A stretch of DNA of 64,000 nt, from assembly GCA_030055465.1 (NCBI GenBank), contig JASFYF010000001.1:634447-698446 (forward strand), in the 5' to 3' direction. Positions 29,722-33,711 of the stretch are shown one piece after another; within the stretch, counting starts at the first letter, position 1; each line of letters opens with the position of its first letter. Under the pieces are notes generated by a model. It was not told the origin of the DNA. It saw only the letters and a program-made list of their open reading frames with translations, and did no database searches. Made by a program: the position numbers and the translations under genes. This DNA is from Candidatus Nezhaarchaeota archaeon. GTDB lineage: Archaea > Thermoproteota > Methanomethylicia > Nezhaarchaeales > WYZ-LMO8.

Positions 29722-32052
29722 TTAAGCATTAATGTAGGCCAGCCCCACGAAGGCTTGACCAGCTGATAAGCCGCCATCGCCTGGAGGCAACTCTCTATGC
29801 CTTAAAACCTTGATGCCATGTTTTGAGGCTTCTTCCTCAATTGTTTTAACCATAACTTCATTTACGGCGGCCCCACCGGAAATCCCCATAACCTTCACTC
29901 CCTCTTCCATAGCTTTCGTGCAGGCCACCTCGGCAAATCCCTTCGCTATAGCGAAGAGCGCCGTGCGCGCAACGGTGGCTGAATTGCAGGTTTTAGCGAG
30001 CTCCAGAAGCTGCAAAAGTATTTGGGAGGCATCGATAATGGCTCTTCTACCCATGTATGATATCGACACGTCAATGTTCACTACGTTGTTGCTCGCCTGG
30101 GCGTGCGCTTCGAGCTTCATAGCTGGTTCACCTTCGTAGGACCTATAGGTGCAAAGCCCCAACAAAGCTGAAACCGCGTCGAGGAAACGGCCCGTGCTCG
30201 AAGATTTCAGCACGTTTAGGCCTGAGGAAAGCTGCTTTAAAATCACGGGCACCTCCTGTAAACCATGCTTGAAGGCGTTTGCGTATCTCTCCACTAGCAG
30301 GGACTCCAACTCATCTTGGCTTAACACTAAACTTAGCAGGCCAGCTAAGGATCTCGCAGGGTAGTACGCGCATATGTCGCCTCCGGGAAGGGGGTATGGC
30401 CTTATATGTCCGACTCTCTCATACTTCATGCCTGAAGCCAGCAAGATCTCGCCGCCCCACGCAGATCCGTCATCGCCTAGGCCCACGCCGTCTATTGTTA
30501 TGAATATTGTATCATCGTCTATCCTCAACCCGTGCTCCGCAGCCAATGAAGCTGCGTGTGCGTGGTGGTGCTGAACCCTTATCAATGGTTTACCTGAAGC
30601 TTCGCTTAGATCCTTGGCAAGCCTAAATGACGGGAAGCTTGGGTTTAGATCGCATGCGAAGGCGTTCACCTCTCTTACTTTAAGAAGTCTCTTGAGGGTC
30701 CCATAGGACTGCTCTAGAAACCTAAGAGAATCTAGGTTGTCGATATCGCCTATGTGTTGGCTTAGGTAGCATTTATTACCCTTAAGTATCGACAAGGTAA
30801 CGTTGAGGTCCCCGCCGAAGGCCACAACGCACCAATCCCCATCCCCTACGCCTGTGAAGGACACCGGAGAGGGAGCGTAACCTCTCGATCTGCGCAGGAA
30901 GGTTGGCACACCGTTTACCATCCTTACAACCGAGTCGTCACAGCGATTCACTATCTCCCTATTGTGACGTAAAAAGTAGTCTGCAACGCCCCAAAGCCTC
31001 GTTAAGGCCTCCGAGTTGTCTGTAGCCATAGGCTCTCCAGGAAGGTTGCCGCTCGTCATTATCAGCGCGGGTTCGCCCACCTTCTTTAGAAGCAGTAAGT
31101 GTATGCCTGTATAGGGAAGCATAACGCCAACAGTGTTAAGGCCTGGCGAAACAAGCTTGGAGAGGGGGCTTTTCTCCTTAACCTTTAAAACAACTATTGG
31201 CCGCTCCTTGGATGTTAAAAGCTTTTCCTCCTCGCTTGTAATGTATGCAATCATGCTTGCGGCCTCGAGGTTTGGAACCATTACCGCAAATGGTTGTTGA
31301 GGTCTCCTGCGCCTCTTCCTAAGCTTCGCTACTACTTCGTCATCAGTTGCTAGACATGCTACGTGGAAACCACCAATGCCCTTAACGGCAATTATGTAGC
31401 CCTCTCTGATGAGCCTCGCCGCCTCGTTTATGGGCTTCTCGCACGGTATTTTAGAGCCTGCTCCGTCGAGCAGCTCAAGCCTTGGGCCACAGAGGCTACA
31501 GCATAGCCCCTCGGCGTGGTACCTCCGGTTTCCAGGGTCATGGTAATCGCGCGAGCAACAGAGACATAAAGGGAATTCAGCCATTGATGTTCGTTCGCGA
31601 TCGTAGGGCATGTCAAGTATCATGGTGAACCTAGGCCCACATGTAGCACAGCACGTGAAAGGATATTCAGCCCATCGGGGATCATGACTCATAATGTCCT
31701 TAACACACTCGTCGCATATTGCGAGGTCGGGGGGAACCGTGGAACCGCTGTGCTCCACTCTAGCGTCGCTGGGCAGTATCCGAAATTCGCTGAAGTCACC
31801 AAGATGCTCAGCCCACTTAGTTGAGATCGATTCTATGCGGGCTGGGGCGGGCTTATCGAGGTGTAGCCTTCTGAGGAATTCTTCGATGTGCTCCCTAGTG
31901 CCTTCCACAACCACCTCTACGCTTGCGTCGCCCAAGTTAGCAACGTATCCTCTCAAGTTTAAAGCTGTTGCAAGCCTATAAACAAATGGTCTGAAACCTA
32001 CTCCCTGCACGAGACCGGTTACACGTATAATGGCCCGGGCTGGAGCGCTCAT
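29722..32052 (-). CDS. hypF: Hydrogenase maturation carbamoyltransferase HypF
   Basis: HypF makes carbamoyl-adenylate from carbamoyl phosphate and transfers the carbamoyl group to HypE for synthesis of the CN ligands. Domains in order: acylphosphatase (1-90, VTGLVQGVGFRPFVYRLA), two zinc fingers (CDECVKDI...CCATCGPR and CLCCSRDY...CCSLCGPR), a YrdC-like nucleotide domain (about 205-385, with IAVKGIGGFHVACLATDDEVV), and a Kae1-like domain (about 420-776, HHHAHAASLAAEHG, GISGGAAVNEVM). 776 aa is full length. It is monocistronic or distal; hypE lies 18 kb away. Confidence 0.97.
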   Translation of the reverse strand: MSAPARAIIRVTGLVQGVGFRPFVYRLATALNLRGYVANLGDASVEVVVEGTREHIEEFLRRLHLDKPAPARIESISTKWAEHLGDFSEFRILPSDARVEHSGSTVPPDLAICDECVKDIMSHDPRWAEYPFTCCATCGPRFTMILDMPYDRERTSMAEFPLCLCCSRDYHDPGNRRYHAEGLCCSLCGPRLELLDGAGSKIPCEKPINEAARLIREGYIIAVKGIGGFHVACLATDDEVVAKLRKRRRRPQQPFAVMVPNLEAASMIAYITSEEEKLLTSKERPIVVLKVKEKSPLSKLVSPGLNTVGVMLPYTGIHLLLLKKVGEPALIMTSGNLPGEPMATDNSEALTRLWGVADYFLRHNREIVNRCDDSVVRMVNGVPTFLRRSRGYAPSPVSFTGVGDGDWCVVAFGGDLNVTLSILKGNKCYLSQHIGDIDNLDSLRFLEQSYGTLKRLLKVREVNAFACDLNPSFPSFRLAKDLSEASGKPLIRVQHHHAHAASLAAEHGLRIDDDTIFITIDGVGLGDDGSAWGGEILLASGMKYERVGHIRPYPLPGGDICAYYPARSLAGLLSLVLSQDELESLLVERYANAFKHGLQEVPVILKQLSSGLNVLKSSSTGRFLDAVSALLGLCTYRSYEGEPAMKLEAHAQASNNVVNIDVSISYMGRRAIIDASQILLQLLELAKTCNSATVARTALFAIAKGFAEVACTKAMEEGVKVMGISGGAAVNEVMVKTIEEEASKHGIKVLRHRELPPGDGGLSAGQAFVGLAYINA

Positions 32053-32486
32053 CAGGAACGCCTCAAGAAAAACCGCTTTGCTTAGTTATCGAAGAAGGTG
32101 AAGGCTTTAAGCCTAAACGCTTAGGTTTGCGTGCAAGCCTCACTGAGCAAAGCTCTCCAAGGTGGCTGAGTACAAGCTTAAGGCAAACGCAGGGGCTTCT
32201 AGGAGGCTGCTTCTCGTGCTTAGAGCGGCCAACGAAGTATGCAGCCTTCAACACGGCGCCGAGCACCCTGACTTCCTCAACCCTCCCCGCTTGGAGCCGG
32301 TTCCAGCAGGGCATGGTGCCGCCGTCAACCAGCCCAATGCTGGGATCAATGGCGACTTCAGGGCGAGCCATCATTTGATTCGCCCGCAAGCTCAAGGTCT
32401 TCAGCTGCGGGTATTAAACAACTTAACCTCAACCTCACCCATAAACGCGGATTCAGAAGCACATCGTAGTGATGGCCCTACGCTAA
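32053..32486. other. Intergenic stretch, possible decayed coding sequence
   Basis: Long ORFs exist in several frames, none with ribosome-binding site or known family. The plus frame 32162-32515 includes a protein-like run (LNPPRLEPVPAGHGAAV) that may be a relic. Nothing here can be firmly annotated. Confidence 0.3.
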
Positions 32487-32891
32487 CTAGAGCCTGGAAA
32501 TTTCCACTTTCTTGACGAGCCGGTACATCCTGTTCTTTCTTTCGCCTCGCCTCTCCAGAAAGCCGCCGTTGTATAACCTTAGTAGGTATGTGGAGACTGT
32601 GGAGAGCTTTAAGCTTTCATTGTATGTTCTAGCATACGCGTCTAAAACATCCTTGCTCGTAAACCAAGAGCTATCACCGAAGCTTTCCTCTAAAACTTGT
32701 TGAAGCCTCTCCATGAGCGTTTGGTCTTGTGGCTCCGCTTGATTGTTCGAAGCCTCTGATGATGAGATTATGTCGATGAGGTCTTTAACCATCTGGATCC
32801 TCTTCCACGGTATGCTCTTGCCTTGGAAGACTATGGTCATCTTGGAGCCGTCTGGGAAAGACACTGTAAACCTGAAGTCGTTGAAAGCCAT
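32487..32891 (-). CDS. Winged-helix DNA-binding protein, probable regulator
   Basis: A 134-aa protein. The N-terminal 40 residues form a beta-rich segment (FRFTVSFPDGSKMTIVFQGKSIPW), followed by a linker helix, and a C-terminal winged helix (FTSKDVLDAYARTYNESLKLSTVSTYLLRLYNGGFLERRGERKNRMYRLV). The ATG at 32891 is used; a GTG 3 codons upstream is the track start. Six 7-bp repeats lie directly upstream, a plausible autoregulatory operator. Not assigned to a named family. Confidence 0.7.
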   Translation of the reverse strand: MAFNDFRFTVSFPDGSKMTIVFQGKSIPWKRIQMVKDLIDIISSSEASNNQAEPQDQTLMERLQQVLEESFGDSSWFTSKDVLDAYARTYNESLKLSTVSTYLLRLYNGGFLERRGERKNRMYRLVKKVEISRL

Positions 32892-32902
32892 AAAAACCAC
32901 AA

Positions 32903-32944
32903 GTTACACTCTACAGCTTACAGGTTTACTTTCACAGTTCACAG
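32903..32944. repeat. Six tandem 7-bp imperfect repeats (consensus about TTTACAG), likely operator
   Basis: Reading plus: GTTACAC TCTACAG CTTACAG GTTTACT TTCACAG TTCACAG. Five of six fit NT(T/C)ACA(G/C); the fourth is out of step. The array starts 12 nt upstream of the winged-helix ATG (minus strand), where transcription start and leader would be, so a bound regulator could block expression. Regulatory role is inference. Confidence 0.55.
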
Positions 32945-33087
32945 TTTTAAGTTTTATTATCGCGAATTTTTACATGAGTTAATATAAGAAGCAAGGTGAA
33001 AAACTTGGTGATGAAACATCCCAGTTAAATAGAAATTTCACAGAGAAAAAAGAGTAGAAAACAACCTTCTCAAGGTAAATGACGTAG

Positions 33088-33633: not shown

Positions 33634-33711
33634 AGCGGGGTGGGGAAGTCAGGTCATCCCGCGGGGCTCATAACCCCGAGATCGGTGGTTCAAATCCACC
33701 CCCCGCTACCA
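33634..33711 (+). tRNA. Initiator tRNA-Met (CAT)
   Basis: Acceptor AGCGGGG/CCCCGCT has the A1-U72 pair of archaeal initiators; the anticodon stem CGGGG/CCCCG supplies the GGG/CCC signature and encloses CTCATAA (anticodon CAT). T arm GGTGG-TTCAAAT-CCACC; discriminator A, CCA encoded. No intron. Confidence 0.93.

What the first reader, a model, noticed from the sequence alone, without database searches (positions are those of the whole stretch)
32903..32944. Six tandem heptamers in front of a winged-helix gene
Six consecutive 7-bp units with consensus near TTTACAG occupy 42 bp, starting 12 nt upstream of the winged-helix ATG. A 7-bp period is not the 10-bp helical repeat, so binding would wind around the DNA. 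It looks like an operator for the adjacent regulator, of a type I do not recognise.
Basis: partly seen in the sequence, partly recalled or inferred. Interest (0 to 1): 0.6.

Follow-up and report, generated by a model that had tools for sequence, protein, structure and literature searches.

The report
Conserved heptamer array at archaeal regulator promoter
In an uncultured Nezhaarchaeota-type archaeon, a run of 7-base repeats (TGTRA-type) sits just after the TATA-like box of a small winged-helix regulator gene; closely similar arrays occur at the same gene's promoter in several relatives and nowhere else found in their genomes, so it is most likely the regulator's own control site.

Summary
The array is real. 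On the gene's strand it reads CTGTGAA CTGTGAA AGTAAAC CTGTAAG CTGTAGA GTGTAAC, then a seventh, weaker TTGTGGT. Unit 3 is degenerate. It is the best 7-bp periodicity in the window, though weak by itself (P about 0.01 for period 7, about 0.04 over periods 5-13). The decisive evidence is comparative. Three same-family genomes carry it at the same place: 26 of 42 columns are invariant across four genomes, against 49 of 183 upstream and 18 of 88 synonymous codons. Searching five whole genomes for three tandem TGTRRNN units gave hits only at this gene's promoter: in the window genome, two family members, and one genome of a different family (34-38% protein identity); none elsewhere, none in controls. 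G002 keeps a degraded version; other families lack it. The array starts where a TATA-like CTTAAAA ends, so it should cover the transcription start: an autorepressor position. The protein is a beta-hairpin/helix domain plus a BlaI/MecI-like winged helix; hypF lies downstream. Binding is not shown. Tandem 7-bp operators are known (omega of pSM19035, ribbon-helix-helix); here the likely binder is a winged helix.

The parts
32903..32944 (-). Six tandem heptamers, gene strand: CTGTGAA CTGTGAA AGTAAAC CTGTAAG CTGTAGA GTGTAAC (U1 32944-32938 ... U6 32909-32903); U3 degenerate, U5 invariant in four genomes
32896..32902 (-). Seventh in-register unit TTGTGGT; overlaps the alternative GTG start (32900-32898); displaced by 2 bp in G003 and G004
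32945..32951 (-). TATA-like box CTTAAAA directly abutting the array, preceded by A-rich BRE-like AATAAAA (32952-32958); start of transcription expected about 32920-32926 (inferred)
   Evidence: similar element in relatives; assigned from general knowledge of archaeal promoters, not tested
32487..32891 (-). Winged-helix regulator gene (134 aa): N-terminal beta-hairpin plus helix, linker, C-terminal BlaI/MecI-like winged helix; single copy in the genome
32864..32870 (-). TTTACAG inside codons 8-10 of the gene, an inverted copy of the unit (CTGTAAA); invariant in four genomes; possible extra site, weak evidence
29722..32052 (-). hypF (hydrogenase maturation) downstream on the same strand; 32-39 bp behind the regulator in three relatives, 434 bp here; possible co-regulated gene

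Best explanation
The array is the operator of the winged-helix gene behind it, and the gene's own protein binds it (negative autoregulation). Each TGTRA-type heptamer is one recognition unit for one winged helix. Several subunits line up along units 1-2 and 4-6/7, held together by the N-terminal beta-hairpin/helix domain, and cover the DNA from the downstream edge of the TATA box across the start of transcription. This blocks RNA polymerase and limits expression of the regulator and, in relatives where the genes are 32-39 bp apart, probably of hypF behind it. Shown: the array, its conservation, its exclusive association with this gene, its position next to a TATA-like box, a winged-helix fold. 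Inferred: that this protein is the binder, that binding represses, and how the subunits are arranged.
For: Recognisable array at the same place in three further genomes of the family, two other genera; 26/42 invariant columns vs 49/183 upstream (Fisher P = 4e-5) and vs 18/88 synonymous codons (P = 7e-6). Pattern TGTRRNNTGTRRNNTGTRR in five whole genomes: five matches, all at this gene's promoter in G000, G003, G004 and G028, zero elsewhere, zero controls. G028 is another family (34-38% protein identity), and only period 7 stands out upstream of its gene (P about 0.002). A sequence-only model of the promoter finds just the four family promoters strongly in 40 genomes (E 1e-17 to 1e-20; next best 0.003). 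One match to the regulator per genome. Winged helix supported by Pfam Penicillinase_R weak matches in 19 of 26 members, a profile match to MecI (E 0.02) and fold hits to MecI/BlaI among other winged helices. BlaI/MecI/CopY operators contain TACA/TGTA (PMC7253601), as several units here do.
Against: No binding or expression data. G002 has only a degraded array (a 1-bp deletion, units 4 and 6 altered; period-7 P = 0.35). Orthologues in most other families lack a comparable array. BlaI-type repressors bind inverted, not direct, repeats. The structure model is mediocre (mean pLDDT 69.7, N-terminal domain about 63). The TATA-like box is assigned by eye; the window's other promoters gave no clear TATA peak.
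Confidence: 0.6

Rival explanations
1. The array is a real operator but for a different DNA-binding protein (for example a ribbon-helix-helix protein of the omega kind, or a global regulator), the winged-helix gene being only its target.
For: The known 7-bp tandem operators are bound by a ribbon-helix-helix protein, omega/ParB of pSM19035, consensus WATCACW, one dimer per heptad (PMC9499535); TTCACAG shares the TCAC core. The winged-helix precedent with direct repeats, BldC, uses 9-bp units, and BlaI-type proteins use palindromes.
Against: No Omega_Repress (PF07764) match in the genome, which is however only 67% complete. A global regulator should have other sites; none found. The array goes with this gene even in another family.
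Confidence: 0.2
2. It is a conserved core promoter and 5' leader (initiator, translation-start or RNA element) with no repeat-binding protein; the 7-bp period is accidental.
For: Periodicity alone is of modest significance (P 0.04 over all periods); G002 conserves part of the sequence without the period; U7 overlaps a conserved in-frame GTG start; a hairpin between array and early codons is predicted (z -2.1).
Against: In G028 the heptamers lie upstream of a separate GAGGAGGT Shine-Dalgarno and keep the 7-bp spacing. The consensus fold has one compensatory pair of 20, and the start of transcription inferred from the TATA-like box would leave units 1-3 out of the RNA.
Confidence: 0.15
3. Neutral tandem duplication (replication slippage) or chance in AT-rich DNA, without function.
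For: A search of 398 genomes for four TGTR heptads gives about as many matches as the reversed control, so such strings arise by chance.
Against: Conserved over distances at which only 18 of 88 synonymous codons stay identical; found at the orthologous promoter in another family.
Confidence: 0.05

Closest known systems
omega (ParB) repressor of plasmid pSM19035 and its parS/operator heptads
   Same: Contiguous 7-bp non-palindromic units (7-10 of WATCACW) overlapping promoters, including that of the repressor gene (PMC9499535); TCAC core resembles TTCACAG
   Different: omega is a ribbon-helix-helix protein; no such family found in this genome; its units also occur in inverted order and serve plasmid partition
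BldC (Streptomyces)
   Same: A winged-helix protein that binds direct repeats head-to-tail as a cooperative multimer (PMC5859096)
   Different: 9-bp repeats (AATTNNNNC); MerR-like family; bacterial
RdfS and other oligomeric winged-helix excisionases
   Same: Winged-helix filaments on DNA, oligomerisation probably aided by an extra N-terminal element, negative autoregulation at own promoter (PMC11963761)
   Different: Recombination directionality factors on mobile elements; no 7-bp tandem units reported in the passages read
BlaI/MecI/CopY (Penicillinase_R) repressors
   Same: Closest named winged-helix family by sequence (below cut-off) and among the closest by fold; operators contain TACA/TGTA
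   Different: Palindromic TACANNTGTA operators; here an N-terminal beta-hairpin/helix domain precedes the winged helix

Membership tests
BlaI/MecI/CopY repressors (Pfam PF03965 Penicillinase_R) | Sequence match above the family cut-off | tested here: not met
   18.6 bits vs cut-off 22.6; 19 of 26 orthologues match at E <= 0.1, best 6.5e-5
BlaI/MecI/CopY repressors (Pfam PF03965 Penicillinase_R) | Palindromic TACANNTGTA operator | tested here: not met
   Array consists of direct TGTRA-type units
BlaI/MecI/CopY repressors (Pfam PF03965 Penicillinase_R) | Winged helix-turn-helix domain | tested here: met
   Model helices 55-71, 79-90, 96-108 and wing strands 112-115, 122-125, block pLDDT mostly 79-88; fold hits 1sd7, 1sax, 1p6r at probability 1.00 but E about 0.02, among other winged helices
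omega/ParB heptad-operator repressors (PF07764) | Ribbon-helix-helix protein of this family in the genome | tested here: not met
   No match at E <= 1 in the 67%-complete genome
omega/ParB heptad-operator repressors (PF07764) | Several contiguous 7-bp units over the promoter of the regulator gene | tested here: met
   Six to seven units, one degenerate, 11 nt before ATG
Head-to-tail winged-helix multimers (BldC kind) | Cooperative binding to direct repeats | not testable with these tools
   Needs protein and DNA
Autoregulatory operator | Site conserved at the regulator's own promoter across species and absent elsewhere | tested here: met
   restricted to family f1 and one genome of family f9
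Autoregulatory operator | Regulator binds site and changes transcription | not testable with these tools
   No binding or expression data

The most novel reading that the evidence does not exclude
An archaeal winged-helix protein that polymerises on tandem 7-bp direct repeats, using an N-terminal beta-hairpin/helix domain to join neighbours that are 240 degrees apart around the DNA: a winged-helix counterpart of the ribbon-helix-helix omega spiral, with no precedent in the papers read here.
Probability: 0.25. Interest if true: 0.6.

Novelty: new variant of a known kind. Interest (0 to 1): 0.42.

Why it matters
Regulators of Nezhaarchaeota and related archaea are, to my knowledge, almost unstudied. 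This gives one testable regulator-operator pair, linked by gene order to hypF (hydrogenase maturation), with a defined 42-bp site and homologous sites in relatives. If a winged helix does assemble on a 7-bp period, it adds a new geometry to direct-repeat operators.

Tried and rejected
(1) Regulon search: heptad patterns and a promoter model found no second site in the genome; a two-unit pattern found none beyond chance in the window. (2) Enrichment of single TGTRA in orthologue promoters outside the family: 17 in 1875 nt near vs 25 in 2746 nt far, no positional enrichment, rejected. (3) Four-heptad pattern in 398 genomes of the phylum: matches about equal the reversed control; the four cases read in detail were simple repeats, a repeat cluster, tRNA-adjacent or probably coding sequence. 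(4) A weak model hit before a TFB gene in G020 (ttaaaaattgtgaattatgaagtag, E 0.003) treated as chance. (5) TGTAGAGTGTRA in the class: seven matches, two at this promoter; the one in G010 is inside a coding frame. (6) RNA structure over array and early codons: no convincing covariation. (7) Histogram of TATA-like hexamers in the window: too few to show a peak. (8) No relatives in viral contigs.

Full report
Setting. The window is part of a 1.02 Mb, 67%-complete single-contig archaeal genome. One same-family relative is a Candidatus Nezhaarchaeota MAG, WYZ-LMO8 (its contig of 17,232 bases has the same length and match as G003 contig C19). The gene behind the array runs on the minus strand, ATG at 32891, stop at 32487, 134 aa. 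Downstream on the same strand lies hypF (29722-32052), then an adenosine-specific-kinase family gene and a ZPR1-domain gene; on the other side is tRNA-Met (33634-33711).

Observation. On the gene's strand the array is CTGTGAA CTGTGAA AGTAAAC CTGTAAG CTGTAGA GTGTAAC TTGTGGT, then TTTTATG with the start codon. It directly follows a TATA-like CTTAAAA. It has the top 7-periodic score in the 64 kb window. Against 400 second-order Markov windows the chance of such a maximum is 0.01 for period 7 and 0.04 if any period from 5 to 13 could have been picked.

Comparison. Orthologues at 79-81% identity exist in three more genomes of the family. All have recognisable versions: G003 CTGTGAA TTGTGAA AATTAAG TTGTGAG CTGTAGA GTGTAGT; G004 CTGTGAA TTGTGAA AAATAAG CTGTGAG CTGTAGA GTGTAGA; G002 a degraded TTGTGAA ATGTAGA AGTGAA(-) TAGTAGG CTGTAGA GCGCAAC with one base missing. 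Of 42 array columns 26 are invariant, against 49 of 183 upstream columns and 18 of 88 synonymous codons. The third unit is degenerate in all, so the conserved layout is two units, a 7-bp gap, then three or four units; units 1-2 and 4-5 are 21 bp apart, two helical turns.

Exclusive association. A search of five whole genomes for TGTRRNNTGTRRNNTGTRR gave five matches, all at promoters of this gene (two overlapping in G000, one each in G003, G004, G028), none elsewhere and none for the reversed control. G028 belongs to another family of the class (38% identity, 34% in the alignment). Its promoter reads AGTAAGCTAAAAAGCTGTGTGGTGTGTAGAGTGTGAAGC, with a separate Shine-Dalgarno GAGGAGGT before the ATG, so there the heptamers are not part of the ribosome site. 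A sequence-only model of the family promoter finds no other strong site in 40 genomes. Orthologues in the remaining families show no array (L010 is borderline with P 0.026, one of 26 tests), so the array is a feature of family f1 and of G028, not of the whole protein family.

The protein. Orthologues occur in 26 of 40 genomes of the class and elsewhere in the phylum. The aligned members share an N-terminal region predicted as beta-hairpin and helix, a variable linker and a C-terminal winged helix with an S-T-x-S-T-Y-L-x-R-L recognition helix. Named families match only weakly: Penicillinase_R below cut-off, MecI by profile at E 0.02, and MecI, BlaI, STIV F93 and Fur winged helices by fold at E about 0.01-0.03. 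The gene sits near hypF in families f1, f9 and f6; in f9 and f6 two further genes (an XRE-type HTH protein and a coiled-coil-like protein) lie between, and in f1 they are absent and hypF follows at 32-39 bp (434 bp in this genome).

Mechanism. The site is tied to one regulator gene, conserved, and placed from the TATA-like box across the expected start of transcription. That is a usual layout for a negative autoregulatory operator in archaea (established knowledge, not tested here). The simplest model is one winged helix per TGTRA unit with several subunits side by side. A head-to-tail winged-helix multimer on direct repeats is known for BldC with 9-bp units, and RdfS shows winged-helix filaments with negative autoregulation. 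Seven-base tandem operators are known for omega, a ribbon-helix-helix protein, which is not found in this genome. Whether neighbouring 7-bp units can all be filled by winged helices, or only units on one face (every third), is open.

Verdict. A genuine, conserved, gene-specific array with the marks of a regulatory site; autoregulation by the adjacent winged-helix protein is the best explanation (0.6). It is a new variant of a known kind, of moderate interest.

Noticed in passing
window 32053-32486: A 434-bp, GC-richer gap separates the regulator from hypF here, whereas three relatives have 32-39 bp; it looks like an insertion or remnant in this genome.
   Followed up: partly
L042, L043, L046, L048, L050: Conserved neighbourhood in several archaeal families: this winged-helix gene, a coiled-coil-like protein, an XRE-type HTH protein ('LRKKAGLTQKELAKRAG...') and, in f9 and f6, hypF; possibly a regulatory cassette.
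   Followed up: partly
L056 1501-1559: In G020 a TFB (transcription factor B) gene has a promoter resembling this one (acttaaaaattgtgaattatgaagtag), E 0.003 with the promoter model; probably chance.
   Followed up: partly
L017, L018, L020, L024-L027, L029, L030 upstream of the orthologue: In family f6 the orthologue's promoter has its own conserved element around the TATA-like box, roughly CYACAATACRCTCATATAC-TGYGAA, possibly a different operator for the same regulator family.
   Followed up: no
L077 1380-1575 (G193): Intergenic cluster of TACA/TGTA-rich repeats (TTTTGTATACTGTATTTTGTAC twice, about 50 bp apart; GTACTAGTACAA several times), possible operator array or inverted-repeat cluster.
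   Followed up: no
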